From the NCBI RefSeq assembly GCF_900119085.1, contig NZ_FPIQ01000007.1:1-64000 (forward strand): a DNA stretch of 64,000 nt. Reading direction: 5' to 3'. Below are positions 4,896-64,000 of this stretch, piece after piece (position 1 is the stretch's first letter; every line of letters starts with the position of its first letter). Below the pieces are notes generated by a model. The model saw nothing but the letters and a program-made list of their open reading frames with translations, ran no database searches and was not told the origin of the DNA. The stretch is from Nitrosovibrio sp. Nv17 (GTDB lineage Bacteria; Pseudomonadota; Gammaproteobacteria; Burkholderiales; Nitrosomonadaceae). Made by a program: the position numbers and the translations under genes.

Positions 4896-5386
4896 TACCC
4901 ACACTCCCTGCGCCGACCGCGATCGGCACGCAAGCACAGTGCGGCATTCTACGGCAAAAAGGCGGGAAGGGTAAGGAGAAGGCGATGTTTCACGTGAAAC
5001 ATCGCCGGCAGGTGCCGCAGATCATTGTCGCGAGCGGCGCCCATGACTTTGCCGGCTTCTTTCGGAAGACGCGGAAATGGCGCTTGTGCCGGGAACGACA
5101 TCTCAACGGCACCCGCGCGGCCACGGAACCGCCCTGCCTTATCATGCCCACATCGAACCGCTCATGATCCTGAAGGCAGCATGGATTCAGTCCGTGCACA
5201 GGAACGCTCGAGTTGGCCCGTTCCATACAACGACTGCCGATGAAGCCACACGCAGCATCGTCGGCGCGAAATGTTCGGCACGTCGGAAATCGACGTGCCG
5301 AAAAGAACCTCGTTCGCCTTGACGGCTGGATGCCACAGCGGCGGCCAGGACAGTCGACGGGCCTCTTGTTGCGGCCGGGATTCGGG
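4896..5386. other. intergenic region holding parS
   Basis: No gene is supported in this 491-base gap between mnmG and the phosphodiesterase gene. Its clear content is the parS palindrome at 4981-5006. The promoter of the mnmG-rsmG-parA-parB operon should lie in the part next to 4895. Short open frames across the rest show no family features. Confidence 0.6.
4981..5006. promoter_or_regulatory. parS centromere site (ParB-binding palindrome)
   Basis: Positions 4986-5001 read TGTTTCACGTGAAACA, an exact match to the widely conserved bacterial parS. The symmetry extends five more bases on each side, so 4981-5006 is a perfect 26-base palindrome. It lies about 90 bases upstream of mnmG and within 4.5 kb of parB. 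I saw no second copy, though I could not scan exhaustively. Confidence 0.96.
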
Positions 5387-6724
5387 CTATTTCAGGTTCA
5401 TGCAGCTCGCGTAGTAGCTGACTGTCGCCGGCCAGTCCGAAAAGATGCCCAGGATTCCTACCTCCTTAGCCAGCACGTCCAGCGCCTTGTACATGTCGCC
5501 GTCCTTCCTGATCACCGCGCCGGACGGATCGAAATCGTAGTAGAAACCCGCGCCGGACGCTCCCTGGCGCAGGTCCGATCGCTCGAAGGTCCAGGTGATG
5601 ATGTCGAAGCCCAGCGCCTTCAGATCCCGCGCCAGACGCGAAGGCACCACACGATTGCCGCTCACCGCAAGGAGCGCCGGCATGGCGGGAGCGACGATCT
5701 CCACCCTGGCCTTGCGCAGCTCCGCGAGGAACCTGAACTGATCCTCTCTCCTCACCAATTGCCTGCCGGCGATGTCGAAGAGCAGGATGTTGTCCCTGTC
5801 CGCATCGTAATCGATCAGGAAGACCGCCTGCCTGCCGTACGCCGTATTCCGCACCCAGTACAGCACGTCGTTCACGTCGAACGACTGGGGCCACGCGTCA
5901 CGCGGCCTGACACCGGCCGCCCGCAGCTCGTCCGCCAGCTTCTGCGCGTACTGCTCCTGGCCACCGAATACCTGAGCGATCGTGGCGGGATCGCCGCCCT
6001 TCAACTCGGGAGTGTGCCTGACGCCATTCCTCTCGTTGAGCTCGATGCTCTCGCGCAGGGTCATCAGCGTGCCGCGGCCGGTGTAGAGGTCGGTACGCCA
6101 CGATGCCGTGCCGCCCAGGAACTCCTCGGGCGTGCGCGCGGCGGGATTGAATGCGTCCATCTTCCCCCGCAGGCTCCTGAACTCCTCGAGGCTGAGTTCG
6201 GACGTACGGCATTCGGCGCTGGCCGGTGTCAGCAGATTGCCGTCCGCATCGAAGCTCGCCGGCGTGAACGGCTTGATGCAGGTGGCGGCAAGCGGCGTGA
6301 CCAGTATGTCGGTCGTCGTGTGCAGATCGTTCTGCGCGTGCCGGCACACGAAATCGCCGTCCTTGGTGAACGTCACGTCGCATTCGACGATGCCCGCGCC
6401 CATGCGCGCAGCAGCCTGGTAGGATTCCTTCGTGTGCTCGGGAAATTGCAAGGCAGCCCCGCGGTGCCCGATGGAAAAACCGGTACGGCGGAAAGGACCG
6501 TTCGCACACTGCAACAGCCGCTTCTTCAGCGGTCCATTCTCCATGCTCTCCACCAGCTGGAACGGGCGGGGTCCAAGCTGGATCGACTGACTGCCCCCAC
6601 GGTCATGATCCCGATCATGACCGTGGTTCCCGCGATGACCATCATCCCGGTCCGCGAACGCGCAACCGGGAAACAAGGCAAGTGCAGCCACTACTGCGGC
6701 AACCTGTATGACTTCGCGCATCAT
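5387..6724 (-). CDS. Secreted glycerophosphodiester phosphodiesterase family protein
   Basis: GDPD enzymes hydrolyse glycerophosphodiesters to glycerol 3-phosphate and an alcohol. The 445-residue protein begins with a hydrophobic signal peptide (residues 1-25, likely cleavage after AFA). A His/Asp-rich low-complexity stretch follows (about 26-45), which might bind metal. The catalytic core shows the typical HRG (IGHRGAA), the metal-binding ECDVTFTKDGDFVCRHA segment and a terminal FSDWP. The protein is longer than the roughly 250-residue core family because of inserts, and probably acts in the periplasm. It is a single-gene unit with no obvious partner. Confidence 0.85.
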   Translation of the reverse strand: MMREVIQVAAVVAALALFPGCAFADRDDGHRGNHGHDRDHDRGGSQSIQLGPRPFQLVESMENGPLKKRLLQCANGPFRRTGFSIGHRGAALQFPEHTKESYQAAARMGAGIVECDVTFTKDGDFVCRHAQNDLHTTTDILVTPLAATCIKPFTPASFDADGNLLTPASAECRTSELSLEEFRSLRGKMDAFNPAARTPEEFLGGTASWRTDLYTGRGTLMTLRESIELNERNGVRHTPELKGGDPATIAQVFGGQEQYAQKLADELRAAGVRPRDAWPQSFDVNDVLYWVRNTAYGRQAVFLIDYDADRDNILLFDIAGRQLVRREDQFRFLAELRKARVEIVAPAMPALLAVSGNRVVPSRLARDLKALGFDIITWTFERSDLRQGASGAGFYYDFDPSGAVIRKDGDMYKALDVLAKEVGILGIFSDWPATVSYYASCMNLK

Positions 6725-6973
6725 TGGGTCCTCCTCTGCGTTGCGGGCGCGAGTGTGCTCCCGTATCCGTGAACGCTACAGCAGGAACATGATGCGAGAA
6801 TGACATCGCCGTGAACCAATCAGCGCAGGGGAAGCCGGCCTTCATGCGGCTTTTCGCGCCAAGGGAACCGGCCCTGGATTCCGAGACCAGGACGTTCATT
6901 ACCGGGCTGCAATCAGAGGGCGGTATGCATTGCACTCTTGAGTATCTCCCATTTTCATGCCATTATTCATGCC

Positions 6974-7219
6974 ATGAAAATTACCATGGATATTGCCGGG
7001 CGGATTGTGGTGCCCAAGCCGCTGCGGCAGGCGCTCGGCCTGACACCCGGTCAGCCGCTCGAGATACGAGCGGAAAACGGGCGCCTCGAAATCGAAGTGG
7101 TGCCGACACCCATGCGTCTGGAAAAGAAGGGGAAAGGCGTTGTCGCCGTTCCCACCACGAAATTGCCCGCACTCACCGCCGCTCAGGTTCGAGATACGCT
7201 GGAACGCGTGCGGCGTTGA
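6974..7219 (+). CDS. vapB: AbrB/MazE-fold antitoxin (VapB-type)
   Basis: This small protein (81 residues) begins with the swapped-hairpin AbrB DNA-binding signature: DIAGRIVVPKPLRQALGL, then a PGQPLEI strand and a C-terminal toxin-binding tail. It would neutralise the downstream PIN toxin and repress the operon. I chose the ATG at 6974 directly before the AbrB core. Its stop overlaps the toxin's TTG start by four bases (TTGA), a typical coupled antitoxin-toxin arrangement. Confidence 0.88.
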   Translation: MKITMDIAGRIVVPKPLRQALGLTPGQPLEIRAENGRLEIEVVPTPMRLEKKGKGVVAVPTTKLPALTAAQVRDTLERVRR

Positions 7220-7620
7220 TCGCAGTCGACACCAGCCTGGTCGTGGCCGCCTTCGCATCCTGGCACGAAAGCCACGAACCCGCGCGTCGCATACTCGAGA
7301 AAGGCGCACGTCTGATCGACCACTGCGCGCTCGAAACCTACTCCGTACTGACTCGCTTGCCTCCTCCGCATCGTACGCCAGGTATGGTGGTGCGGGATTT
7401 CGTGACGGCACGATTCACTGAACCGCTTCTGCGATTGGATGAAAGAAGCTACAAGAGCTTCATCCTGGAACTGGCGGAGCGCGGGATTACAGGCGGTTCC
7501 GCGTATGACGCGCTGGTGGCTGCCACCGCCGTGGCGCACGGGGCCGAGCTCGTCACATGCGACCGGCGCGCGTTGCCGGTGTATGAACGATACGGCCTTC
7601 GGATACAACTGCTGGAATAA
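7216..7620 (+). CDS. vapC: PIN-domain ribonuclease toxin (VapC-type)
   Basis: VapC toxins are Mg-dependent RNases that usually cut tRNA or rRNA. The 134-residue protein has the PIN acidic residues: an Asp in the opening AVDTSLVVAAF, a Glu in the LETYSVL helix, Asp in SAYDALVAA, and the terminal TCDRRA motif. The start is a TTG at 7216 overlapping the antitoxin stop. A longer in-frame extension to 6811 runs through the antitoxin gene and is not credible. The gene marks the left side of the defence-rich block. Confidence 0.88.
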   Translation: MIAVDTSLVVAAFASWHESHEPARRILEKGARLIDHCALETYSVLTRLPPPHRTPGMVVRDFVTARFTEPLLRLDERSYKSFILELAERGITGGSAYDALVAATAVAHGAELVTCDRRALPVYERYGLRIQLLE

Positions 7621-8225
7621 AATTTCGGCGCGCACCTCCCATCTATAGATGCATCAGGCCGGACGGCCGAACCGTCAAGAACCCACGGCCGGCATCCGAC
7701 AGGCCCCGTCCCACCTGACAAGCCTTCGCACGGCCAAGCCCGGTTCGGCAGACTCAAGCCAAGTAATGATTCTGTCATTCCGCGCGACGAGACGTTCCCC
7801 ATCCTTCTCGATCCGGTCGAGCAAGGTGTTTCCAATTTACCGATAGCCTCGGAGGGCCCCGATCTCATACGGGACAACTTGTCCCTCATGCAGGCCGGAC
7901 AGAAACCGGCTTGCATCATCCTCGCTCCAAAACCCGTCACCAGCGTAAATGCTGACACAATGGGAATGGCGGAGAGGTACCTGTCCTCGCTTCGGCCCCT
8001 CCTGAACCCTCAGTCAGAAAATATGAACGTCCAGCAATTTCCATGGCACGTACCGCGTTACCCAGGGAGATCTCAATCGAGCCTGGATAGCGGCTCCCGG
8101 CATGGCCACAGCCACCAGCATCCTGCATCGCCCGAATCCCTGCCGCCACTATCGCGATTTGCGAGTGGCACCCTGTATCTTTCCATTTGCGTATCACATG
8201 CACATCGCAATGACAGGGGTCCAAC
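7621..8225. other. intergenic region with an unassigned open frame
   Basis: No recognised gene lies in these 605 bases. The plus-strand frame in phase with the VapC gene has no stop from 7621 to 8316. Part of it (about 7741-7990) has a protein-like composition, but it has no good start or family match and runs into the HIRAN gene. It may be a decayed gene or chance openness in high-GC DNA. Confidence 0.35.
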
Positions 8226-8684
8226 ATGGGTATTCCGATCAGATTGCCCGAGATTCACGATGGGAGAACCGATCGCGCGAAACGCCGGTTCCTCGGCAGG
8301 CTCGCGGGGCTGCTGACTGTCGCTCCCTTCGCGCCACGGGCCTCCACGGCATCCCGCGTGGTGCTCATCCAGACCTCCCCAATCGCCGGATTCCAGTATC
8401 ACGACGGCGAAGCGGTGTGGACAGGGTTGCGCGTCGGGCAGGCGCTCACACTGGTGCGCGAGTCGCGCAACCCCCATGACGGCAAGGCCGTGCGTGTCGA
8501 CTGGCTGGGCCACAAACTCGGCTATGTGCCACGAAGCGAAAACCATGCGGTTGCGGAGCTGCTCGACCGCGGTGCCAAACTGTCGGCACGCATCGCCGCG
8601 CTGAGCGAGAAACGCGATGCCCACGGATGGAAGTCGAACTGGGACCGGGTGCGGCTCGAAGTGTTGCTGGCGGCGGAACCTTGA
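8226..8684 (+). CDS. HIRAN-domain protein with Tat-like leader
   Basis: The HIRAN domain is a small beta-rich module, first seen in SWI2/SNF2 helicases, that binds DNA ends or stalled forks. Here it fills residues about 50-130 of a 152-residue protein, with the typical order: a GFQYHDGEAVW strand, LRVGQALTLVRE, NPHDGKAVRV and KLGYVPRSEN. The N-terminus has RRFLG followed by a hydrophobic run and an Ala-rich end, like a twin-arginine export signal. The protein may therefore act outside the cytoplasm. It lies between the VapBC pair and the type I-G cas operon but is not clearly co-transcribed with csb1 (300-base gap). Confidence 0.8.
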   Translation: MGIPIRLPEIHDGRTDRAKRRFLGRLAGLLTVAPFAPRASTASRVVLIQTSPIAGFQYHDGEAVWTGLRVGQALTLVRESRNPHDGKAVRVDWLGHKLGYVPRSENHAVAELLDRGAKLSARIAALSEKRDAHGWKSNWDRVRLEVLLAAEP

Positions 8685-8984
8685 AGCGTGAGCGCATTGC
8701 CTGGCCACTGTTCTGGCTATGGCTGTGGTTTCATGAGTCAGGAGGTAGGGGCTCCCGCATTGCAAGGCTTCATCTTCGGGAGCTGAATGATGGAAAACTG
8801 AGTAACGTGCAGGTACATACAGGGATTGTCAAAGATGGTAGCTACGAAACTATTGATAGCCAACACAATTATTTATTTGCATAATAAACGGATCAGTTTA
8901 TATGCATCGTAATATATTTCCGCGACATCATGCCGCGGCCGCATCGATCAGCATAATAGAACAGCTTGCTTACAGGAGGGTTTC
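8685..8984. other. AT-rich upstream region of the type I-G cas operon
   Basis: No gene is supported here. From about 8790 the sequence is clearly more AT-rich than its surroundings and probably contains the csb1 promoter. It includes an interrupted inverted repeat at 8879-8905 and ends with a strong ribosome binding site, AGGAGGG, at 8974-8980, four bases before the csb1 ATG. No CRISPR repeat unit is visible. Confidence 0.55.
8879..8905. promoter_or_regulatory. Inverted repeat upstream of csb1 (possible operator)
   Basis: The left arm GCATAATAAAC (8879-8889) and right arm GTTTATATGC (8896-8905) are complementary apart from one bulged base, separated by six bases. The position about 80 bases upstream of csb1, inside the AT-rich promoter region, suits an operator or protein-binding site. 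No binding protein is known from this sequence. Confidence 0.4.
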
Positions 8985-10229
8985 ATGATTCCGCTAGCTC
9001 TGAACACACTTGTAGCGTCGACAATTGAGGATGCCGCCCTGCGCCGCCGCCAGGCACTTCAGCCGGTGGGTGGAAAAGGCGACAAGATCTTTCCGCCCAC
9101 CTACCCGGGTGAGGGACGCAATGCCCCGCCCCGCCATGTGTATGAAAAGCGGCGGCTGGAGACGCAGGATACCTGGTGTGTCCTGGTCGACAGCGTCCAA
9201 TCACAGGCCAACCGGTTGGAGGAATGCCTGCTCCAGGCGATGGCAGACGGCATTCCGATCCCGCACGTCGCGGTGGACTTCAGCGACGCCAGGCTGGAAG
9301 GGATTTCCAGCATCACCTCGCTCGACGCTCCGCACCGCGTCTACGACGCGATCCTGCGCGACAGCCTGCTCGGGAAAGAGCCGTTCATGGAAAGCGAGGT
9401 CGGCAGGCGGCTTGCGAAGGCCAAGGCTGAGGACGCCTCGGCGCTGCTGGAGATCTCGCCCACTGCGCTCCTGTTCGGCGCCTGGCACTCGACCGGGGAA
9501 GGGGGCGGGATCGGCGCCAAATTCGCGCGGTGCCTGATATCCGAGATCACCGGGATCGACGTCCCCGTGGAAGAAGTGACGGACCGGAGAACCGGAGAGA
9601 TCGACTTTCGCACGACCGGGCGCCGTACCGGGAGCAGGATGGACCCGCTGGGGATTCTGAGGAAGGTAGAGGTTTTCAAAGGCGAGTACGGCTGGAGCAC
9701 GAGTGACGCTGCAGCGGGAAAGAAGGCGAAGAAGGTCAGGCCATCTGAAATCAACCATGGCAACATCGCGCCGTCCGTGCAACCGCTGGGCGTCACCTGC
9801 GATCATCTGGAACACAGTTTCGTGCTCAGTTTCGCCGCCCTGCGTCGATTGCGCTTTGGCGGTGGCGAAGAACGGGATTCCGCGGCCCGCGCCTTCCTCG
9901 CCGCGCTCGGCCTCCTTGCGCTCGCCGAGCAGGATGCGCGAGGCTATGCGCTGCGTTCGCGCTGCGACCTGGTGTGCGATGGGCGCGCGGCGCTCGAACT
10001 GGTGCATCCCGACGGGACGACCGACGCCGTCTCGATCGATCGTGCAGGCGCGCACAAACTCTACATGGACGCATTTGAAGCGGCCCGGGCCGCAGGCTTC
10101 CAGCTTTCGGGAACCCCCCTGGCCCTGACGCCGCAGGACAAATTGGTCGAAATCGTTCGCAAAAGCCAGGATCTTGCACTTCATGGAGCGGGCGGCGAGG
10201 ATGGAGATTCCGACGATCCATCATCATGA
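8985..10229 (+). CDS. csb1: Type I-G CRISPR Cas7 subunit Csb1
   Basis: Csb1 (GSU0053 family, Cas7u) is the crRNA-coating backbone subunit of type I-G (formerly I-U) Cascade. The 414-residue protein has family features: an opening NTLVASTIEDAALR, a KIFPPTYPG segment with the long Cas7 thumb region after it, a central LLFGAWHSTG, and a C-terminal ALAEQDARGYALRSRCDLV region. It is the first gene of a four-gene cas operon with a strong ribosome binding site, and overlaps csb2 by ATGA. The related Cas7 of other type I systems would be shorter and lack the FPPTYPG segment. Confidence 0.92.
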   Translation: MIPLALNTLVASTIEDAALRRRQALQPVGGKGDKIFPPTYPGEGRNAPPRHVYEKRRLETQDTWCVLVDSVQSQANRLEECLLQAMADGIPIPHVAVDFSDARLEGISSITSLDAPHRVYDAILRDSLLGKEPFMESEVGRRLAKAKAEDASALLEISPTALLFGAWHSTGEGGGIGAKFARCLISEITGIDVPVEEVTDRRTGEIDFRTTGRRTGSRMDPLGILRKVEVFKGEYGWSTSDAAAGKKAKKVRPSEINHGNIAPSVQPLGVTCDHLEHSFVLSFAALRRLRFGGGEERDSAARAFLAALGLLALAEQDARGYALRSRCDLVCDGRAALELVHPDGTTDAVSIDRAGAHKLYMDAFEAARAAGFQLSGTPLALTPQDKLVEIVRKSQDLALHGAGGEDGDSDDPSS

Positions 10230-11704
10230 GCCTCGTCCTCGAAATCGAATACCTGTCCGGCGTCTCGTTCGCAGCGATCGGCCCCGACAGTGCCGCGCCC
10301 GACTGGCCGCCGCAGCCCGACCGCGTTTTCTCGGCCCTCGTCGCGGCATGGGCAGGGCGAGGACAACACAGGCACGAAGCGCAGGCGCTTGAATGGCTGG
10401 AAGGACAGACACCGCCCCGCGTCCTCGCATCTTCCGCCTGCACGCGCACGGGTGCGATTGTTTTCGTGCCGCCGAACGACCCCCGCAGCGACAAGCAGAA
10501 GAACGCACGAGGCGTCTTTCCGCCGTTGCGCGGTCGCCAGCCGCGCCGCTTCCCTGCAGCACGGCCCGCCAAGCCGGTCGCGCGCTTCGCATGGGACGAC
10601 GCAGTCCCGGACGGCACGACGCTCTCCGCATTGCAGCGGTTGGCGCACGACACCGCTTACGTCGGCCATTCGGCCAGCCTCACGCGCTGCCGCTTTTCCA
10701 CCGAGTGCGGCGAATCAAGCTCGGATTCGCAATCGACTGCGCAACGCAATATCTATCCCGGACGTTTCGCGGAATTGCAGCGCGAGTTCGCGGCGGGCCG
10801 CCGGCCCCTGCGCAGCACGGCGTCTGCAACCCCTTCCAGCCCGGTCACGGCCGGCACAAACGCGTTCGGTGACCGCTGGCTGCTCCTGGAGCACGTCGAT
10901 GGGGACATGCCCGATCTGCGCGCGTGCGCCATCGTGGCGAAGACCATTCGCGATGCCCTGCTCAGCGGCTATAAACGCATCGGCCGGGAAAACGCCATTC
11001 CCGAAGCCGTCAGCGGGCATACGCCGGACGGGAAACCGAGCCGCGCACCCCATCTCGCGATTGTCCCGCTGCCGTTTGCCGGCTTTCCTTACGCCGATGG
11101 GCACGTGATGGGCTATGCGCTCATTCCGCCCCGCGACGGCGGGCTTCACGACGGCTCGAATTTCGATCCCGTCTTCCTGAAGGCGCTGAGAACCATCGCG
11201 CCCCTGACCGGCAGCCGGCGCATCCTGACGGTCAAACCCAGAGAGGGGACGGGTCGCCGCCGCGGTTTTTCCATCGACCTCTCGTTGACGCAGGAGCCGT
11301 CCGCGAGCAAGCGCTCGCTCGACCCCGGCCTATACCTGCAGCGATCGCGAACCTTTGCGACCCTAACGCCGATCGCACTCGACCGGCATCTCAAAAAGGA
11401 AGACGGCGCGCGCGAGGATGAAATCAAAGCGCTGATCGCCGCTGCCTGCATCAATATCGGACTGCCGGAACCCAGCAGGATCGCCACCGACAAGCACTCG
11501 GCCCTGGAGGGCGCACCTTCGGCGTATCCCTCCGGAAAGGCGCCCGCATGGATGCGGTGGCATCTGCCTTCCTCCCTTGCCAGCCGACTCCTCGTGCACG
11601 CCGTGATTCAGTTCCCCAGCCCCGTCGATGGACCGGTGATCCTCGGCGCGGGACGTTTCGTCGGACTCGGCCTGTGCAGACCTCTCGACAGGGAGGCACG
11701 ATGA
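10226..11704 (+). CDS. csb2: Type I-G CRISPR Cas5-Cas6 fusion Csb2
   Basis: Csb2 (GSU0054 family, Cas5u6u) combines a Cas5-like RAMP with a Cas6-like pre-crRNA endonuclease. It would process the crRNA and cap its handle in type I-G Cascade. The 492-residue protein starts LVLEIEYLSGVSFAA, followed by PDWPPQPDRVFSALVAAW, both typical of the family, and has a C-terminal RAMP half (LILGAGRFVGLGLCRP glycine-rich loop near the end). Fusion of Cas6 explains why no separate cas6 is seen. It overlaps csb1 and cas3 by ATGA. Confidence 0.92.
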   Translation: MSLVLEIEYLSGVSFAAIGPDSAAPDWPPQPDRVFSALVAAWAGRGQHRHEAQALEWLEGQTPPRVLASSACTRTGAIVFVPPNDPRSDKQKNARGVFPPLRGRQPRRFPAARPAKPVARFAWDDAVPDGTTLSALQRLAHDTAYVGHSASLTRCRFSTECGESSSDSQSTAQRNIYPGRFAELQREFAAGRRPLRSTASATPSSPVTAGTNAFGDRWLLLEHVDGDMPDLRACAIVAKTIRDALLSGYKRIGRENAIPEAVSGHTPDGKPSRAPHLAIVPLPFAGFPYADGHVMGYALIPPRDGGLHDGSNFDPVFLKALRTIAPLTGSRRILTVKPREGTGRRRGFSIDLSLTQEPSASKRSLDPGLYLQRSRTFATLTPIALDRHLKKEDGAREDEIKALIAAACINIGLPEPSRIATDKHSALEGAPSAYPSGKAPAWMRWHLPSSLASRLLVHAVIQFPSPVDGPVILGAGRFVGLGLCRPLDREAR

Positions 11705-53899: not shown

Positions 53900-54459
53900 A
53901 TGATGGCTCTGACCGACACTGCCCTCAAGGCGCTCAAGCCCAGGGACAAGACCTATATCGTCACCGACGACCGTGGCCTGTACGTGGAGGTGTTCCCGAC
54001 CGGGGGCGTCGTCTAACGTTACCGCTACCGGCTGAACGACAAGTACGAGAAGTTGACCTTGGGCAAGTATCCGGCGCTGACCCTGAAGAATGCCCGTATG
54101 AAACGGGACGAAGCCGCCCAGCAGGTCGCATTGGGTGAGTCTCCGGCGAAGAAGAAGCAGTTGGCCAAGGTGGCGGGGTTGGAAGACACCACAGTCGCCG
54201 AGTTCGCCGAACGCTTCCTCAAGGACATCCAGTCACGCGACCGCAAGGACGTGACAATGCCTCGCCGCTACCTGGAGAAGGACATCCTGCCGCACATCGG
54301 CAGCAAGCCGGTCCGGGACATTACCGCCGAGGACGTGCGCAGCGTCATCTGGCGCAAGAAGGCGCAAGGTTTCGACTCCGCCGCCGGCCAGGTGCGGGGC
54401 CTGCTCAAGCGCATGTTCGACTATGCGTTGACCTGCGGCCTGATCCAGGCCAACCCGGT
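53900..54459 (+). pseudogene. Tyrosine integrase (P4/DUF4102 type), 5' part
   Basis: The reading starts MALTDTALKALKPRDK, the DUF4102 integrase N-terminus, followed by LTLGKYPALTLKNAR and the SAM-like core-binding domain (TVAEFAERFLKDI). An in-frame TAA at 54014-54016 interrupts it after GGVV. An IS21-type element is inserted at 54460. Before decay this enzyme would have moved the island that starts at mnmE. Confidence 0.9.
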
Positions 54460-54527
54460 GTCAAGCGCAAATGAAAATTGAGCCAGATTGGGCGATATTG
54501 CGCAAAGTAAATCTGAGCCATTGCTTA

Positions 54528-56237
<1,710 letters not shown>

Positions 56238-56330
56238 CGTCGGCCTTCGCGCAAAAAAAGCTGACTTTACAGAAAAGTGGCTCAGTTTTACTTCGCACAA
56301 AGTGGCTCATTATTACTTTGCGCGCAACAG

Positions 56331-56941
56331 CGGTCATGGCTTTGCCAATGCGGCACGCCTACCGCGCTGCCGCTCGCGAACGGGCGCTGACGCCGGACGA
56401 AATCCGGCAGTTCCTGCGCGCCATGCAGGCCTCCAACATCCGCCACCAGATCAAGATCGAGTTCCAGTTGATCCTGATGACCCTGGTGCGCAAGTCTGAG
56501 CTGATGCTGGCGCAGTGGAAGGACGTGCATCTGGACGAAGGCGAATGGCACATCCCGGTCGAGAATTCCAAGACCGGCAAGCCGCACATCGTCTACCTGT
56601 CCACCCAGGCGTAGACGCTGTTCAAGGAACTCAAGCCGCTGGCCAGCAGCAGCGACTGGGTGCTGCCGGGGCGTGGCACCCTGGCTAAGCCCTTCGCCAG
56701 CAATGCGCTGAACCAGGCGCTGAAGGTGTCATTGCAGGGGCAGGAGATCCCCGCCTTCACTATCCACGATTTGCGGCGCACCGCCTCAACGCTGCTGCAC
56801 GAACAGGGCTGGCCTTCGGACGTGGTAGAGAAGGCGCTGAACCACACCATCGGCGGCGTGCGCGGTGTCTACAACCGGGCCGCGTACGCCGAGCAGCGGC
56901 GGGAGATGTTGCAGCGTGGTCGATCTACATCAACAGACTAG
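56331..56941 (+). pseudogene. Tyrosine integrase (P4/DUF4102 type), 3' part
   Basis: The reading resumes in frame after the IS element: MALPMRHAYRAAARERALTPDEI, then the catalytic domain with VRKSELMLAQWKDVHLD, HDLRRTASTLLHE (the H-x-x-R box) and LNHTIGGVRGVYNRA with the nucleophilic Tyr. A second stop (TAG, 56612-56614, probably from CAG) lies after LSTQA. Joining it to the 5' part at the CGGT repeat gives an otherwise complete integrase. Confidence 0.9.
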
Positions 56942-57121
56942 CACCATCAGCTAATTGGTGGTGTGAGTCCGTCTGAGGCGCAGATGGCCTTTTCCTTTTT
57001 TGGGTAGGGCCGTTGTTCCTTGAGCCCCATTCCCTTTACAACCTTTATGGATTTACGGATTCATTTTCAAAGGAATAGTTTTGATAACAATGATTTCTCC
57101 AGCACAAAAAAATGTCTCACT

Positions 57122-59218
57122 CTACTGTGAGCGAAAAATATCCACCTTTGTCTCCAGGCATTTGCGCAAACTCAGATCGTTTGCGCCAACCTCGAACCAT
57201 CCCCCTGGCTTCTGATAGAAGTCGAGGCCGCGTCCAATCTTGATCACCCATCCGTTATCCAGGCGGATTTCACGGTCATGAATGTTCGGATTGAGCTTCA
57301 CCTCTAGCTCCACATCCAACTCCAGCAGGCTTTGCTTCAACTCATCGAGCTTTTCGGCAATGTCGGCCAGTTGGGTTCTGACGTCATACCCCGTGATCAG
57401 GTCGATTTTCTTCACCGTGCCAGCCTTCAGCACCGTCTCGCAGAAGCGCACGAAATTCTGAATTTGATGCTGGAGCCGGATGTAAGGATCTTCAATGACA
57501 ACGGCTTTCGCGCCTTGTAGATAGGGTCCGATGATCGACTCATAGCTATAGCCGGTGTCTCCATAGAGGATCGTGAAGTGCTGTTCCTTCAGTTCTGCCG
57601 GGGCCGGTGCTGTAGCAGTAGGTGTCGGTGTAATCGGAGGTGGAGCGACGGAAGGTACCGCTTCGCCGGTTGGCGAGGGTTGAACGCCTAGCTGCACAGC
57701 AGCTACTTCGCCGGGCTGCTGATCCGGCCGAGTCAGTCTGCGACGGGCCGGCTTCTGCGTCGCCGGTGCATCCTTCGACTCCGGGCAGAACACCACCACC
57801 TCATCACCACCGGCCTTGAAGTAGGACAGGTTGATCCGGGCGAACTCGTCATCCGGCTTGCGCTTGTTCATCTGCTCCTTGACGCGGCGGCGGCATTCCG
57901 TCGCATAGGCCACGTATTCCTCGAACTCCTCGTCCGTTGGCGGCCCGTTCGGATGCAGCACCTTCAAGAATGCGCAGACGGTTTTCTTGATGCCTTTCTC
58001 GTCGCGCCCTTCAATCGATTTTCCGAGTCGAATGCGCTTGCTCACTTCCTCATACCGATTCGTGTGCTTGAACTGGTAGTGGAAAGCTTCGGCCAAGTAA
58101 TCGGTGATGAATCCGTAGTTTCTGGTCAGGAACTCGCTGCTGTTCTTGGGCATCTCCCAACCTGGGATGTACGCAGCGAATCGGTCCATCACTGCCAAGT
58201 CAAGCTCTGGCGGCAAGGGCTGAAACAGGTCGTGTTCGTTGGAATTGACCACTTGCTGTACTGACACGTCGATGTTGCCAACAAAGCTCAAGCTGGCATC
58301 CGCGATGACTTCGGCTCCGCGCGAGAAGCGCCCATTGGCCATGAAGTCCTTCATGATCTGGATGGTGTCCGGGTCGCGCACCTTGATCCCGCCAACTTCG
58401 TCGAACGCAACAGTGTCCCAAAAGCCAACCAGTCCCACCTTGCGACGTGCGTTGTTGTAGAACAGCGTGGCTTTGGTGGCCTGGCCACCCGAGATCAAGG
58501 TGGCGTAAGGCGAAAACTCGCTGAAGAAGTAGGACTTGCCCGTGCCGCGTGGCCCCAACTCGATGTAGTTGTAGTTGGGCTCCACCAAAGCGGCCAACCT
58601 AGCGATGAAGTGCATCTGCACGCGCTTCGAGAGCTTGCTTGGCTCCAGGCCTACTGAGCGCAATACCGCAGCGATCCACTCATCACGCGTGAAGGCTGAT
58701 CGGCCTTCTGCGTAGCGTTCAAAATCGAATCGCGTCAGTTGGATCGGTCGCAAGTCCTCAATAGAAAACGCATAATCGTCTTCATCAATGTCGTTGTGCG
58801 CCAGGGTGACCTCGGCCCAAATTCCGCCTTCCAGCAGACGATCGTTATCCTGGTAGAACTTCTCGGCAATGGCGATGCGTTGCGAGTTGAAGTTTTCCAG
58901 GGAAGCCCAATGGCGCTTCTCCTTCTCGACATAGCGCACATGCACTTTGTCGATGAAGCGGTGCCTGCCTTTTGTGGCCACCTTGGACTGCGCGGCATTG
59001 GCCTCATCTGGCCGCACATAGTTCTCCTGCAGCGACGAGAGCACTGCTTCCATGCCGGCGTCCATCTCAGCCTGGTCATTGCTGGCGCAGTACTTGGCAA
59101 GCAGGAACTCCAGGACGAACGTCGGGACGTTGGTGCCTTTCTTGATCCGGTGCAGCAAGTCCTTGCGCAGCACCTTGCCATCGAAAGTGGCGTTCAGTTT
59201 TTGGTCGAGTTCGTCCAT
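57122..59218 (-). CDS. brxL: BREX AAA+ protein BrxL with a MITD1-like C-terminal domain
   Basis: BrxL is an AAA+ protein of BREX phage-defence systems that forms ring-shaped DNA-bound assemblies. The 698-residue protein has the BrxL N-terminal region (start LDQKLNATFDGKVLRKDLL), Walker A LGPRGTGKS (221-229), AFDEVGGIK (271-279) and the DRFAAYIPGWE segment. After a Pro/Thr/Ala-rich linker (about 480-545) the usual Lon-like protease region is not seen. Residues 546-698 instead match the phospholipase-D-like C-terminal domain of MITD1: IEDPYIR at 575-581, HDREIR at 647-652, NGWVIKIGRGLD at 655-666. The start at 59218 is four bases after the pglZ stop; 59245 is an alternative. Confidence 0.88.
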   Translation of the reverse strand: MDELDQKLNATFDGKVLRKDLLHRIKKGTNVPTFVLEFLLAKYCASNDQAEMDAGMEAVLSSLQENYVRPDEANAAQSKVATKGRHRFIDKVHVRYVEKEKRHWASLENFNSQRIAIAEKFYQDNDRLLEGGIWAEVTLAHNDIDEDDYAFSIEDLRPIQLTRFDFERYAEGRSAFTRDEWIAAVLRSVGLEPSKLSKRVQMHFIARLAALVEPNYNYIELGPRGTGKSYFFSEFSPYATLISGGQATKATLFYNNARRKVGLVGFWDTVAFDEVGGIKVRDPDTIQIMKDFMANGRFSRGAEVIADASLSFVGNIDVSVQQVVNSNEHDLFQPLPPELDLAVMDRFAAYIPGWEMPKNSSEFLTRNYGFITDYLAEAFHYQFKHTNRYEEVSKRIRLGKSIEGRDEKGIKKTVCAFLKVLHPNGPPTDEEFEEYVAYATECRRRVKEQMNKRKPDDEFARINLSYFKAGGDEVVVFCPESKDAPATQKPARRRLTRPDQQPGEVAAVQLGVQPSPTGEAVPSVAPPPITPTPTATAPAPAELKEQHFTILYGDTGYSYESIIGPYLQGAKAVVIEDPYIRLQHQIQNFVRFCETVLKAGTVKKIDLITGYDVRTQLADIAEKLDELKQSLLELDVELEVKLNPNIHDREIRLDNGWVIKIGRGLDFYQKPGGWFEVGANDLSLRKCLETKVDIFRSQ

Positions 59219-59222
59219 GGGC

Positions 59223-61748
59223 TTACTCCGTATAGTCCGTTTCAAGCGCCAGATTGCTGTAGGCCGCCAAGGTCGTCGGGTTCAACGCCACAACCTTGAA
59301 CTTGCCCCTGAAATCCTCATCCATTCGCAATGCAATCTGTTTGCGCTGGTTCGGCATCAGGGTCACCGTTCTCGTCGCAGGGTTCACATCACCACCGGGG
59401 CGCGGCTCTCCCACGACATTACCCTTGCTGTCCTGGGCCTCAAGCAAGATTTCCACGCTCATGTCCTGCATGAACATGTCATCGGATATCAAGGCCACTT
59501 CAATCACGGGCAGCAGGGTGGTGATGCGCTTGGCGCCGTTCTTGTAGCTCAGCTCCACCAGCACCTTGCGTGGTTCCGCATTGGCACCATGGTCAAGACG
59601 AGCAACCAGAACGGGAACGACCGCCTCCGCCAAAGACGCACCACCATGAAAATAAAGATGGCCAGCGCGGTACGGAGCCATGCTGCGTGGCAACGCCACC
59701 TCGGTGAAATCGCCGCGAATACCAACCTTGTCTGCGCTGACGACCAGGCTGTGGCTGTCCGCTGTGCCGTTGCCCAGCATCATGCGGTCATGAGCATTCA
59801 GCCATTTCCCCTGCGGTTTCACGCACACATCGCCAGCCTCTGCCTGCGCGTTCAGGAAGAAACCGTGATCGGTCACGATGACAGCCTCTTTAAAGCCCAT
59901 GCCACGCAGCTTGTGCAGTGCCACGCGGATCAGCTTGAGCGTGCCGGGGATCAGCCCCAAGGTTGTCTCGGGATTGTTTTCCAGTTGACTGTCTATTTCC
60001 GTAGAGCGCAGCACCAGTAGATCGACGGTCTCGGCGATCTTCGGTTTGCCACGCACAAATTCGCCCAGCGGCATTTCCTCGAAGCGATCGCCATACCGCT
60101 TGGCCAGCACACCGATGCGCTGCGCCACGCTTCCCACAGGTTCACCGTCTAACTTGGGCACCAGCGAATCGTTCTCCAGCGCCAGGGCCAGCCCGGTGCG
60201 GGCATTGGGCAACAGGCTGGCCATGCCGACCAAGGTGATGGAGGGCAACTGCGCATACGCCACCTGTAACTCAACAGGGCCATCTTCGGTCAGCAGCTTT
60301 TCAAGCGCCACGCCCAATTCGTAGCGCAAGGCATCTACCATCAAATACGCCACCTTGCGGCCACGCTCCTTGAGGCGGTCAGCCACAAGGCGATCGAAAA
60401 CATCGGCGTTGGCCAGTCGACCAGTGGGCGGCCAGCCTGCCGTCTCGATGTGCTTGACGAAGATGCCTTGCACCTTTTCCGCCAGGTGGCGATAGCGCGC
60501 ACGTGCCTGGTTGATGACCTCGTGCATCAGCCCATGCTGATCGAGAAAATCCCCTGCGGCCTGCTCAAACTCACGCTGCAGACGATCTGCCTCGCGCAAA
60601 CTGTTCAGATAGAAGTCGATCAACTCCGCCTGCGATCGCGCATGACCAGGCAACTGGCGTTCGAAGTCGTCGCAGGCTTCCACCAAGCTCAGGCCCGAGC
60701 GCACCAGTTCCCACTGTGCCTGGCTTTCTCCTTTACCCAGCCAGACAGAGCCCTTGTGTCTGGCCAGCACTCGGCGTGTGGCATCCGTGTCGTCCGTGAC
60801 GATGCCCTTGATGGCGGCGCGCAGGAACGTCCGCTCCTCAAAGGGAAAGGTATCCCGCTCGCCCAGGTCTTCCAGAGAACCGCACAGCTCAACGAGATTG
60901 AGTTCCTTCTCTATGGTCTCTGCCCGGTCGATGTAGGCCGCACGTGCTTTGGGATCATTGCGCAATTGATCGCACACCCCTTCGACGATAGGCCTGGCCT
61001 CCGGCGGCGCGTGCGGCACGCCATTCAGGGCATCGGGCAAGGCCAGGGGAAAATCAAAAACGAACTCACTGAACAGCACATAGCGCCACAGTTCGTCCGC
61101 CAGTGCGCCCCAAGTCTTGCCACGCGTTTTCACGCTCAATCCTAGGGTCGCTCGCAGGAAGTCGCGTGCCTCCTGTACCCATCCTTCCTGGACCTTCAAT
61201 GCGTCGATCTGCTTGGCGCTGGGTACCAGAAGAGCGGCCAAAATCTCGCGGCCCGATTCCACCTGCAATGTGGCTCGCAACTGGGGCCAGCTTACGCCGC
61301 CGCCAATCGCGTCGATGACTGCAAAAGTCGGCCCGGAGGGCGACGTCGCAAACACCTGGCGGATCTCAGTGGTGTGGTCCGGCCTCGCACGCAAGCACAA
61401 GCTCAAGTAATCGTCACCATCATCTTGCGGGAACACCGCACCGCATTCTGCATACAGGGCAAATGGATCTACTTGCTTCTGTTCGTCGGTTTCCGGGCGC
61501 TTGGCAGGCACATAGATCAGCACAGCCCCCAGCGGCGCCTTGGGTTGGCCCACATCGCGCAGTGCCAACAAAGCCGCTTCGCGGCTTTCGATGCTGCTCT
61601 CGGACGCATCCACCACCCGCACCTTGTCAGCCGCCAGATCTAAACACTGCTCACGGTAGCGCTTGTCGGCGTCGTACACGACCAAGGCGCCAGCTTTCAT
61701 CAGACGTGGCCGCAGTACGCCTTCTCGGATAAATTCTGCAATCGTCAT
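59223..61748 (-). CDS. pglZ: BREX alkaline-phosphatase-like protein PglZ
   Basis: PglZ is the hallmark protein of BREX and Pgl defence. The 841-residue protein has an N-terminal TIAEFIREGVLRPRL and VVYDADKRYREQCL, and in the C-terminal half the alkaline-phosphatase-like PglZ core: VAYLMVDALRYELG with a metal-site Asp at about 472, and IVTDHGFF. The start at 61748 gives an ATGA overlap with the DUF262 gene; the extension to 61829 lies inside that gene. Its long N-terminal region helps identify it as a BREX type-1-like form. Confidence 0.9.
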   Translation of the reverse strand: MTIAEFIREGVLRPRLMKAGALVVYDADKRYREQCLDLAADKVRVVDASESSIESREAALLALRDVGQPKAPLGAVLIYVPAKRPETDEQKQVDPFALYAECGAVFPQDDGDDYLSLCLRARPDHTTEIRQVFATSPSGPTFAVIDAIGGGVSWPQLRATLQVESGREILAALLVPSAKQIDALKVQEGWVQEARDFLRATLGLSVKTRGKTWGALADELWRYVLFSEFVFDFPLALPDALNGVPHAPPEARPIVEGVCDQLRNDPKARAAYIDRAETIEKELNLVELCGSLEDLGERDTFPFEERTFLRAAIKGIVTDDTDATRRVLARHKGSVWLGKGESQAQWELVRSGLSLVEACDDFERQLPGHARSQAELIDFYLNSLREADRLQREFEQAAGDFLDQHGLMHEVINQARARYRHLAEKVQGIFVKHIETAGWPPTGRLANADVFDRLVADRLKERGRKVAYLMVDALRYELGVALEKLLTEDGPVELQVAYAQLPSITLVGMASLLPNARTGLALALENDSLVPKLDGEPVGSVAQRIGVLAKRYGDRFEEMPLGEFVRGKPKIAETVDLLVLRSTEIDSQLENNPETTLGLIPGTLKLIRVALHKLRGMGFKEAVIVTDHGFFLNAQAEAGDVCVKPQGKWLNAHDRMMLGNGTADSHSLVVSADKVGIRGDFTEVALPRSMAPYRAGHLYFHGGASLAEAVVPVLVARLDHGANAEPRKVLVELSYKNGAKRITTLLPVIEVALISDDMFMQDMSVEILLEAQDSKGNVVGEPRPGGDVNPATRTVTLMPNQRKQIALRMDEDFRGKFKVVALNPTTLAAYSNLALETDYTE

Positions 61749-63553
61749 TTGTCCTCCCGCAGGCTCAGGATGGACATCACCTCCTTGAGCATCTCGTCTG
61801 TGCGCGCCGTAATGGCGGCCTCGTTCCAATCATCTCGGCTGGCCAAGTCGGCATTCAGGTACAAGCCGTTGCGGTAACCGATGAAGTCGCCCTGCTCGTT
61901 CTTGCGATCCCGCTTTTTCAAGAATTCCATCGTGCCGAGCTTGGAGTTGTAGCCACTCAGTGTCAGATTGCCGAGCTGGTGAGCACAGCGCTCGCGAATG
62001 GCAGCCGCAGTGCCTGTCTGATCCCCTTCGAGCATCGTCACCCAGCCCGGCCCCAAGTTTTCGGTCTTCGGCAGGATGTGTTCAACAGTGAATACGGGGC
62101 GATCATTGGCGTCATGCGCCCACAGGTCGCGTTTGGTCTCGCGGGTTTGGTGTGTCTCTTCCAGCTTGCAAAGCATGAACCGCGTGGCGTCGTAATTCTC
62201 TAGGTACACGTCGCCCTTGAGGCGCGACTCGCAAACATCCTGCGGGGCTGCCCGTGCCAGCAACCAATCACTGGCTTGCTGGATGAAGCCGTCCAGCGTC
62301 GTGACCTCGCCACTGCGAATCCGCGTCAGCAAGTAGCCGACCAGTTCCATGAACATCGGGTCGAGTTCGCGGGTGGGCGGCATATCGGTGAGGTTGCGCC
62401 AAAAGAACCACTTGGTGAGCAAAGTGGCCAGACGGCTCACTACATCACCCTCAGTCCATTTCTTGCTCTGCGCCACCTGGCTGGCCCACAGCAAGAATGC
62501 GTAAGCCGGCGCGGCTCCCAGGCGCTGCAGGTCTTGCAAGGCCGCGGCGGTAGCGTCGCCCCATTCCGCGCGTGCAACCATGGGATTGAGCAGCGCCGAG
62601 TAGGTCTTGCCCTTGGCCTGAAGCGCGCCGAACAGCCAGACCGGACGCTTGCGCAGCAGGGTGTCGTAGATGGAGATAAGGTTCGAGCGCGTGGCGCGTG
62701 TGCAGCCTTTGACCTCGACCCGCTTGAGGTACTTGAACATGTTGTACAGCTGGCGCAGGAAGCGCTCCTGCACTGCTGGGTCGGGCAACAGGTCAATCAG
62801 GTCTTTCCATTCGTCAAACGCCCGATCAATGCCATAGTCCGGGCGTTTATCCAACTCGGCTAGCAGGTTGTTCTTGATGATGTCGATGGCCGAGAGCGGG
62901 ATGCCCCGGTTGTTGATCGTCTCGAAAAGCACAAAGGCATCCGAGTGGCTAGGCACCTCGATCTTGACCAGGATTGCCGCCTTCAGCTTATCCAGCAGCG
63001 CCAATGTTTGCTCGATACTCAGCGGCTGCAGGCGCTCGCGGAAATAGCTATACGCTTTGGCGATACGGCGGTTGCCGAAATAGCTCAGGCCCTTGGGCGC
63101 GGAGACTAGCTTCGGGAAGAGGTCACTCAGTACCTTCTGGAAGTCGGCCTTGTTCTGCGCCTGCTCGCTGGGCTCAAAACGCCACTGATTGGTCGACTTG
63201 ATAAAGAGCCGGTTCTTGAGGTTCACGATCTCGACATTGAAGTCGTCATCCGGGTCTGGATGGGCCTTCAGCCGGTCGTAGAGTGCGCAGAACAGCAGGC
63301 TGATGGTGGTGAAACGCTGCTGACCATCGATCAATTCCAAACGTCCTCCCGCCATCGAATCCTTCTGGTTGTTCACGCAGATGATTGAGCCTAGGAAATG
63401 TCCCTTGGGGGAATCTTCCAGATCATTGAACAGCGCCTCCCAGTCCCTCGGTTTCCACACGTACTCGCGCTGATACTTTGGGATAAAGAACCGCTGCGCA
63501 GCGTCCGGATTGAAGTAGTGGCTGACCGGGTAATCCTGAACACTGCTGATCAT
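61745..63553 (-). CDS. DUF262-DUF1524 (GmrSD/BrxU-like) restriction protein
   Basis: GmrSD-type proteins are type IV restriction enzymes that use nucleotide hydrolysis to cut modified DNA. The 602-residue protein has the DUF262 signature YQREYVWKPRDWEALFNDL and IDGQQRFTTISLL (about 75-87), and FETINNRGIPLSAIDIIKN. Its C-terminal DUF1524 HNH-type nuclease reads VEHILPKT ... HQLGNLTLSGYNSKLG. It is embedded between pglX and pglZ with ATGA overlaps on both sides, so it belongs to the BREX operon, like BrxU in the E. fergusonii BREX locus but in another position. Confidence 0.9.
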   Translation of the reverse strand: MISSVQDYPVSHYFNPDAAQRFFIPKYQREYVWKPRDWEALFNDLEDSPKGHFLGSIICVNNQKDSMAGGRLELIDGQQRFTTISLLFCALYDRLKAHPDPDDDFNVEIVNLKNRLFIKSTNQWRFEPSEQAQNKADFQKVLSDLFPKLVSAPKGLSYFGNRRIAKAYSYFRERLQPLSIEQTLALLDKLKAAILVKIEVPSHSDAFVLFETINNRGIPLSAIDIIKNNLLAELDKRPDYGIDRAFDEWKDLIDLLPDPAVQERFLRQLYNMFKYLKRVEVKGCTRATRSNLISIYDTLLRKRPVWLFGALQAKGKTYSALLNPMVARAEWGDATAAALQDLQRLGAAPAYAFLLWASQVAQSKKWTEGDVVSRLATLLTKWFFWRNLTDMPPTRELDPMFMELVGYLLTRIRSGEVTTLDGFIQQASDWLLARAAPQDVCESRLKGDVYLENYDATRFMLCKLEETHQTRETKRDLWAHDANDRPVFTVEHILPKTENLGPGWVTMLEGDQTGTAAAIRERCAHQLGNLTLSGYNSKLGTMEFLKKRDRKNEQGDFIGYRNGLYLNADLASRDDWNEAAITARTDEMLKEVMSILSLREDK

Positions 63554-64000
63554 TCGTCGCCCCCAGCCTTCTTCTTACGTGCCTTTTTCGGAGCGGCCTC
63601 CGGCTCGATGTACAAATCCTCCAGGCCGTGCGCGATGGCGAGCGACTTGTCGGTGTTGCACTTCTCGCGCACGCGCTCGGGCCAGTAGTTCATGGCCAGG
63701 TGTGCCCAGTCGTAGTCGCCTTTTTGCAGCTTGGCCCAGGTGTCCTTAAGCACCTTCTGCCAGGGCTTGTGGCGGAACAGCGGCCACAGCGGCGCGGCGC
63801 TGATTTGCACGCCATCGTCGTGGTTGGGTTTATAGGTGGGCGTGAGCTTGAGTAGGGTGTCGCGCAGCTCGATCAGCTCCAGCTCAAAGGCTTGCAATGC
63901 CTCGAACTGTTTTTCGTCGTCGCGAGTGCGTGCCGAACCCTTGTTGCGCAACGCCGTCACATCAGCACCGACTTGTTTGAGCTTGGGTTCGACGAAGTCA
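63550..64000 (-). CDS. pglX: BREX adenine methyltransferase PglX, C-terminal part (runs off the edge)
   Basis: PglX methylates host DNA in BREX and is needed for defence. Only the last ~150 residues lie in the window; the frame is open to the right edge. The visible part has TPTYKPNHDDGVQISAAPLW, FRHKPWQKVLKDTWAKL, the DYDWAHLAMNYWPERVREKC segment and a Lys-rich tail, which I recognise as the PglX C-terminus. The catalytic NPPY motif would lie outside. Its stop overlaps the DUF262 start by ATGA. Confidence 0.85.
   Translation of the reverse strand, partial: DFVEPKLKQVGADVTALRNKGSARTRDDEKQFEALQAFELELIELRDTLLKLTPTYKPNHDDGVQISAAPLWPLFRHKPWQKVLKDTWAKLQKGDYDWAHLAMNYWPERVREKCNTDKSLAIAHGLEDLYIEPEAAPKKARKKKAGGDE

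What the first reader, a model, noticed from the sequence alone, without database searches (positions are those of the whole stretch)
57122..57630. BREX BrxL carries a MITD1-like (ESCRT-associated) C-terminal domain in place of the Lon-like region
Residues 546-698 of this BrxL contain SYES, IEDPYIR, the HQ-x-x-NF-x-RFCE pattern, HDREIR, NGW-x-IKIGRGLD and ET-x-VDIF in the same order and spacing as the C-terminal phospholipase-D-like domain of eukaryotic MITD1, as I remember that sequence. In MITD1 this domain binds phosphoinositide membranes during abscission. In BrxL it sits after a Pro-rich linker where the Lon-like domain is expected. This suggests BrxL variants swap effector domains, and that this one may bind membrane or nucleic acid ends.
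Basis: partly seen in the sequence, partly recalled or inferred. Interest (0 to 1): 0.85.

Follow-up and report, generated by a model that had tools for sequence, protein, structure and literature searches.

The report
Anti-phage BrxL with MITD1-type PLD domain
A bacterial anti-phage protein (BrxL of a BREX system) ends in a domain that is a true relative, about half identical in sequence, of the membrane-binding end of a human cell-division protein called MITD1; the domain swap itself was already reported as a putative DNA-cutting domain, but the MITD1 kinship makes its real job an open and testable question.

Summary
Window 57122-59218(-) encodes BrxL (698 aa from the ATG); its last ~150 residues are Pfam MIT_C (PF16565, E 3.9e-51), 71 of 145 aligned residues (49%) identical to human MITD1. 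The AlphaFold2 model (pLDDT 93.4) matches the MITD1 crystal structure at Z 23.9. No Lon match was found; 9 of 9 Lon-type BrxL tails did match Lon_C. The domain follows a low-confidence Pro-rich linker.

The swap is in print: Rakesh & Krishnan 2026 (PMC12839542) count 1030 of 2913 BrxL with an 'HKD-endoDNase' (presumably this domain) in place of the Lon-like one. That main text does not name MITD1. New here: human MITD1 lies nearer the window's BrxL clade than that clade lies to other bacterial MIT_C; H and R of the HxR motif are each kept in 130 of 131 prokaryotic domains, but the D is N or S in 11, and N in human. MIT_C also occurs with dynamin, Sel1 and IF2_N partners and in Type-4-like BREX loci. 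I favour a DNA-phosphate-binding, perhaps cleaving, paired PLD module over a membrane anchor; nothing here settles it.

The parts
57122..59218 (-). brxL, 698 aa from ATG 59218 (707 aa from the TTG at 59245)
   Evidence: Pfam BrxL_N, BrxL_ATPase, MIT_C
58799..59188 (-). BrxL_N domain (residues 20-149 of the 707-aa ORF)
   Evidence: E 1.1e-43
57830..58768 (-). BrxL AAA+ ATPase domain (residues 160-472 of the ORF); Walker A GPRGTGKS and Walker B FDEV present
   Evidence: E 1.2e-119; aligned to BrxL structure 8emc E 1.5e-125
57605..57751 (-). linker, residues 490-538 of the 698-aa protein, pLDDT under 50 (Pro/Ala-rich: 15 P and 11 A in ORF residues 481-560)
57131..57553 (-). MIT_C / PLD-like domain PF16565 (ORF residues 565-705), relative of the human MITD1 C-terminal domain
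57257..57280 (-). H-x-R-x4-D motif (HDREIRLD; H656, R658, D663 of the ORF numbering; H647, R649, D654 from the ATG)
59223..61829 (-). pglZ, directly upstream of brxL
61745..63553 (-). GmrSD-type (GmrSD_N and GmrSD_C) gene between pglX and pglZ
63550..63999 (-). C-terminal end of pglX, continuing beyond the window

Best explanation
The gene is the brxL of a BREX operon (BrxA, BrxB, BrxC, UvrD-like helicase, PglX, GmrSD, PglZ, BrxL). Its BrxL_N and AAA+ parts should form the DNA-encircling ring known for Acinetobacter BrxL. In place of the Lon-like domain that joins two such rings tail to tail, it carries a flexibly tethered PLD-fold domain of the MITD1 family. Most likely mechanism (inferred): the PLD domains pair with one another, within or between rings. 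Each pair forms a pocket around the conserved H, R, Q, N and R residues that grips, and possibly hydrolyses, the phosphodiester of the DNA that the ring has loaded onto, so that the domain acts as the restricting end of BrxL. Shown here: homology, fold, replacement of Lon, conservation of these residues, BREX context. Inferred: that these residues line one pocket, ring assembly, pairing, DNA as the ligand, and any cleavage.
For: MIT_C match and MITD1 homology. After MITD1 (Z 23.9) the model's best matches are mostly PLD-superfamily proteins, many acting on DNA: yeast Tdp1 9.8, SauUSI 9.4, NgoAVII R protein 9.1, NucT 8.6, Nuc 8.4, BfiI 7.8. Across 131 distinct prokaryotic domains (as little as 27% identical to the window's) H656 is kept in 130, R658 in 130, Q594 in 131, R590 in 130, N597 in 129, D675 in 130 and R694 in 130. 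PglZ is present in 66 and adjacent in 63 of 68 scorable clade-A loci (76 examined, 8 without enough upstream DNA). A non-BrxL MIT_C protein (L188) sits beside an Eco57I-type methylase and an Mrr_cat restriction gene. BrxL rings encircle dsDNA and the Lon-like domain joins rings tail to tail: PMC10164562 (passages seen). Endonuclease proposal: PMC12839542 (section 19 read).
Against: The catalytic Lys of HKD enzymes is Arg here, and the following G-S/G-x-N element reads GRGLD (canonical motif recalled). The D of the motif is N in 10 and S in 1 of 131 domains, 9 of the 11 being BrxL fusions. Human MITD1, which keeps H and R but has N, is reported to bind membranes (title of Hadders 2012 seen in reference lists, and passages); I saw no report that it cuts DNA. 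One BrxL lacks the H (L144) and one the R (L114). No PLD nuclease reached E 10 in the PDB profile search; among the 25 of 40 families shown the only PLD family was PLDc_2, in 1 of 66 members, E 0.046. Z values of 7-10 may reflect only a common arrangement; the archaeal regulators TrmB/TrmBL2, not PLD proteins, reach 6.9-7.2. The net charge of the domain is negative (window -4, BrxL median -4), which does not favour loose DNA binding. Dimerisation was not tested here.
Confidence: 0.48

Rival explanations
1. Non-catalytic structural replacement: the PLD domain only pairs BrxL rings (the job of the Lon-like domain), and the conserved pocket binds a phosphate for stability or sensing; restriction is done by PglZ or others.
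For: The Lon-like domain it replaces lacks a protease dyad and mediates ring-ring contacts (PMC10164562, PMC12839542). Lys replaced by Arg and D lost in 11 of 131. PglZ is kept beside it (63 of 68 scorable loci).
Against: Near-invariance of H, R, Q, N, D675 and R694 across deep divergence is more than a mere pairing surface needs. The linker of low pLDDT suits a tethered domain better than a rigid coupler.
Confidence: 0.3
2. Membrane anchor: as in MITD1, the domain binds lipid and holds the BREX ring, or captured phage DNA, at the cell membrane where DNA enters.
For: 49% identity to MITD1, which binds membranes (references and passages). MITD1's domain is as acidic overall (net charge -5) as the window's (-4), so net charge does not speak against membrane binding. 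The same domain is fused to a dynamin-family GTPase in Thiodictyon (Dynamin_N E 2.8e-20, MIT_C E 2.7e-21).
Against: The lipid named for MITD1 (PI(4,5)P2, table row in PMC9776629) is not a normal bacterial lipid (general knowledge). No membrane-linked gene in the operon was noticed by eye (no transmembrane search was run). MITD1's lipid-binding residues could not be checked (Hadders 2012 not held).
Confidence: 0.17
3. The C-terminal region is an inactive Lon-like domain as in other BrxL, and the MITD1 resemblance is spurious.
For: NCBIfam names the family Lon protease-like BrxL.
Against: PF16565 E 3.9e-51 and no Lon match, while 9 of 9 Lon-type tails match Lon_C; model matches MITD1 at Z 23.9.
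Confidence: 0.01

Closest known systems
BrxL with C-terminal 'HKD-endoDNase' (Rakesh & Krishnan 2026, PMC12839542)
   Same: Same described architecture: BrxL N-terminal and AAA+ parts, PLD-type domain with an HRD motif in place of Lon; 1030 of 2913 Type-1 taxa in that paper.
   Different: The paper infers an active endonuclease and, in the held main text, does not mention MITD1 (0 occurrences). Its alignments are in supplements that I could not open, so identity with this domain is presumed from the description.
PADLOC BrxL model PDLC02508
   Same: Full-length match 1-695 of 698 positions, E 5.8e-292.
   Different: Only a name; no function for the C-terminal part.
Human MITD1 C-terminal domain (PDB 4a5z, 2ymb)
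   Same: 71 of 145 residues identical, Z 23.9, same motifs in order.
   Different: No MIT domain in BrxL; the motif D is N in MITD1; attached to an AAA+ protein, not to an ESCRT-III binder.
Acinetobacter BrxL (8emc/8emh)
   Same: N-terminal and AAA+ parts align over 11-476, E 1.5e-125.
   Different: Its C-terminal domain is Lon-like (PMC10164562, passages).
PLD-superfamily nucleases (Nuc, NucT, BfiI, NgoAVII, SauUSI)
   Same: Fold level, Z 7.8-9.4; H-x-[KR]-x4-D layout.
   Different: Arg for Lys, altered GSxN element, no sequence match to them in the PDB up to E 10.

Membership tests
BrxL of a Type-1-like BREX system | BrxL_N plus BrxL_ATPase domains | tested here: met
   E 1.1e-43 and 1.2e-119
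BrxL of a Type-1-like BREX system | operon with BrxA, BrxB, BrxC, PglX, PglZ | tested here: met
   PADLOC: BrxA E 1e-123, BrxB 4.9e-113, BrxC E 0; PglZ E 0 and PglX 6.1e-69 for its C-terminal part. NCBIfam PglZ and PglX type models match only below their cut-offs, so the exact subtype is not fixed
BrxL of a Type-1-like BREX system | Lon-like C-terminal domain | tested here: not met
   no Lon family at E up to 1; published as a variant in 1030 of 2913 Type-1 BrxL taxa
Pfam MIT_C (PF16565) | profile score over the curated cut-off of 25 bits | tested here: met
   173.1 bits, whole profile
MITD1 protein | N-terminal MIT domain | tested here: not met
   no MIT domain in the Pfam scan to E 1
MITD1 protein | membrane and ESCRT-III binding | not testable with these tools
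   bench work
HKD (PLD) nuclease | PLD fold | tested here: met
   strongly through MITD1, then Z 7-10 to other PLD proteins
HKD (PLD) nuclease | H-x-K-x4-D with catalytic Lys, followed by G-S/G-x-N (recalled definition) | tested here: not met
   H-x-R in all but 2 of 131, D in 120 of 131, GRGLD instead of GSxN in the window
HKD (PLD) nuclease | DNA hydrolysis | not testable with these tools
   bench work
Lon protease domain | Lon_C profile match | tested here: not met
   positive control 9 of 9 Lon-type tails

The most novel reading that the evidence does not exclude
MIT_C is a mobile bacterial defence module, and the membrane-binding domain of the eukaryotic ESCRT cofactor MITD1 shares its closest ancestry with the BrxL domain of BREX: an abscission domain taken over from bacterial anti-phage immunity (or, less likely, the reverse). 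Its family membership then also puts the published 'BrxL endoDNase' label in doubt.
Probability: 0.5. Interest if true: 0.7.

Novelty: new member of a known kind. Interest (0 to 1): 0.5.

Why it matters
BREX restriction has no agreed effector. About a third of Type-1 BrxL are reported to carry a putative nuclease domain (PMC12839542). Showing that such a tail belongs to the same family as human MITD1, whose reported property is membrane binding, turns a naming question into a direct test (cut DNA, grip DNA, or bind membrane), and it offers a case in which a eukaryotic cell-division domain and a bacterial immune domain may have a specific common origin.

Tried and rejected
Lon-like fold: rejected.

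L101, a viral-contig ORF joining PglZ and the BrxL linker plus MIT_C on a contig with phage genes: looks like a chimera and was dropped before counting. The partial hits L008-L011 and similar (E about 1e-4, positions about 57-127) were not counted: in the two read, L008 and L009, the 361-aa and 380-aa ORFs overlapping the match look like ABC-transporter ATPases by eye.

A viral-contig scan with the dynamin-type domain found no relative, and no phage record matched the window's domain. The full-length BrxL model has a poor AAA core (residues 219-341 under pLDDT 50), so only its linker and C-terminal domain are used. Contacts between domains, dimers and residue-by-residue overlay with Nuc or BfiI could not be computed, because model coordinates are not in the Python box. 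The profile search of the PDB found no PLD nuclease up to E 10. In the tree the support first noted (98/92) belongs to the split of clade A from human plus the rest; the split of human plus clade A from the rest was then read off as 100/100. Papers not held: Hadders 2012 and the Menshen paper cited as first report; I know them only as cited references. Whether MITD1 or the bacterial domain is ancestral cannot be decided from an unrooted tree with one eukaryotic row. Archaea were not sampled for PF16565, apart from any among the 14 control genomes.

Full report
What is there. Window 57122-59218(-) is brxL, the last gene of a BREX operon. Upstream, in L094 (the same contig beyond the window; ORFs), lie BrxA (10483-11277), BrxB (9927-10502) and BrxC (6257-9961), each a near full-length PADLOC match, and a UvrD-like helicase (3540-6254; Pfam). 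PglX spans the window edge (about 1290 aa). Then come a GmrSD-type gene, PglZ and BrxL. The ATG of brxL at 59218 follows the PglZ stop. BrxL_ATPase was found in none of the 22 other genomes of the same genus that were searched, so the operon is patchy there.

The C-terminal domain. Pfam gives BrxL_N, BrxL_ATPase and MIT_C and nothing else at E up to 1. phmmer against the PDB gives the BrxL structures for residues 11-476 and human MITD1 for the rest. AlphaFold2 on 51 aligned sequences gave pLDDT 93.4. Foldseek and VIA-align place it on MITD1 (47% identity, Z 23.9; TM-score 0.88 over the model), then mostly on the PLD superfamily at Z 7-10, where archaeal TrmB-type regulators also appear at about 7. 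In the full-length model the residues 490-538 before it are under pLDDT 50; the AAA core of that model is poor and is not used.

Lon control. Among 37 BrxL loci from viral contigs, 26 carry MIT_C, 9 a 209-210-aa tail, and 2 neither (one short, one truncated). All 9 tails match Lon_C over its cut-off. The query alignment was made of MIT_C-type BrxL, so these are not frequencies; the published count is 1030 of 2913 (PMC12839542, section 19). On a tree of 86 BrxL N+ATPase parts (quick method), MIT_C-type proteins fall into three separate groups (42 B, 30 A, 3 C rows) and the 9 Lon-type rows into two sets; with the two 'short' rows left out (one is the broken L109), Lon versus MIT_C needs at least 2 changes. 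So more than one exchange of the C-terminal domain is suggested, but branches are long, one of the separating forks is weakly supported, and the root is unknown.

Conservation. 158 ORFs matched the domain at E below 1e-10. After removing duplicates, the chimera and rows with undetermined letters, 131 distinct prokaryotic rows remained, the window's included: 124 BrxL and 7 others. The 7 others are L044, L081 and L133 (short or contig-edge ORFs), L109 (a broken BrxL), L149 (with Sel1), L112 (with IF2_N) and L110 (with dynamin). In ORF numbering (subtract 9 for the ATG), H656 and R658 are each kept in 130 of 131; D663 in 120, N in 10, S in 1; Q594 in 131; R590, D675 and R694 in 130 each; N597 in 129. 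Human MITD1 has all of these but N for D663. The exceptions are listed. So these residues are under strong constraint, shared by bacterial and human members, and depart from canonical HKD enzymes in Lys (Arg) and in the GSxN element (GRGLD). The paper's statement that the K-to-R change 'likely preserves' activity is given there without a test in the section I read.

Kinship with MITD1. Human MITD1 is 40-52% identical (median 47.6) to the 87 rows that are 45% or more identical to the window (window included), but 28-37% (median 33) to the other 44; the window is 27-39% (median 32) identical to those 44. On the domain tree the human row sits on the branch between the window's clade and the rest: the split of human plus clade A from the rest has support 100/94 (67 rows) and 100/100 (62 rows, five long or odd ones dropped); the split of clade A from human plus the rest has 99/85 and 98/92. 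In the 62-row tree the median path from human to clade A is 2.3, and to the other rows 4.5, as it is from the window to those. So MITD1 is nearer to clade-A BrxL than clade A is to clade B BrxL. With a midpoint root this nests MITD1 in the bacterial diversity; if the root lay on the human branch it would not. One eukaryotic sequence and no outgroup: direction not shown.

Spread of MIT_C. The genome scan kept the best 80 of 109 relatives; in 78 of 80 the ORF with the domain also holds BrxL N/ATPase sequence, and the two others are a 177-aa ORF and a contig-edge piece. PF16565 over its cut-off: 7 of 398 genomes of the window's own phylum, and 3 of 251, 20 of 345, 5 of 346, 10 of 194 and 4 of 199 genomes in five other phyla; a few of these matches are partial, and each set includes the genome on which it was centred. 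Plasmids: 24 records of 72,556 at E 1e-5; phages: none of 50,697 at E 0.01. Partners other than BrxL: Dynamin_N (Thiodictyon plasmid), 17 Sel1 stretches beside Eco57I and Mrr_cat genes (L188), IF2_N (Paenarthrobacter plasmid). In L230 and L231 a third BrxL-MIT_C lineage lies with SspB-like and SspC-like genes, the Type-4 kind, together with an Eco57I/MmeI-type methylase; a PglZ match was found in L230 (weak) and in L229, but the gene in that place in L231 gave none. A PAPS reductase was not searched for. The paper describes Type-4 BrxL as lacking C-terminal extensions, so these Type-4-like loci are an exception or a hybrid.

Mechanism. The Acinetobacter BrxL ring encircles DNA, and its Lon-like domain joins two rings (PMC10164562, passages). 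A PLD domain that pairs, as I recall for single-HKD enzymes and for MITD1, could take over that joining and put a phosphodiester-handling pocket next to the DNA. I put this ahead of a purely structural role and of a membrane role, at about even odds overall. The dynamin and MITD1 partners keep the membrane reading alive.

Known or new. The architecture is published and is in PADLOC. My ten paper searches (terms around BrxL, MIT_C, MITD1, PF16565, phospholipase D, HKD, horizontal gene transfer, prokaryotes) gave one paper that lists PF16565 with BREX as a Pfam label (PMC12715929, passage); in the listings and passages I saw, none draws the MITD1 connection. The library lacks most subscription papers, and NCBI already labels such proteins 'MIT C-terminal domain-containing', so the link may well be known to database users.

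Noticed in passing
window 54053-56950: An integrase-like start (54053-54481,+) is followed by IS21-type istB/istA-like genes (54528-56300,-) and then integrase-like sequence read on the + strand; by eye it looks like an integrase split by an insertion element at the edge of the BREX island.
   Followed up: partly
L230 2-12067; L231 7970-19812: BrxL-MIT_C in Type-4-like BREX loci (SspB-like and SspC-like genes in both) that also hold an Eco57I/MmeI-type methylase; a PAPS reductase was not searched for.
   Followed up: partly
L110 3640-6483: Dynamin-family GTPase with a C-terminal MIT_C domain on a Thiodictyon plasmid: a likely membrane-remodelling enzyme with the MITD1-type domain.
   Followed up: partly
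L188 1-8310: MIT_C protein with 17 Sel1 stretches beside an Eco57I-type methylase and an Mrr_cat gene, a possible separate defence system.
   Followed up: partly
L112 3470-4519: IF2_N plus MIT_C protein on a Paenarthrobacter plasmid, with N for the motif D as in MITD1.
   Followed up: no
window 61745-63553: GmrSD-type gene between pglX and pglZ; a similar gene occurs in 9 of 60 clade-A loci with enough upstream DNA.
   Followed up: partly
L109 4439-6480: BrxL of a Hymenobacter plasmid annotated in several pieces with a separate MIT_C ORF: probably a decayed BREX locus.
   Followed up: no
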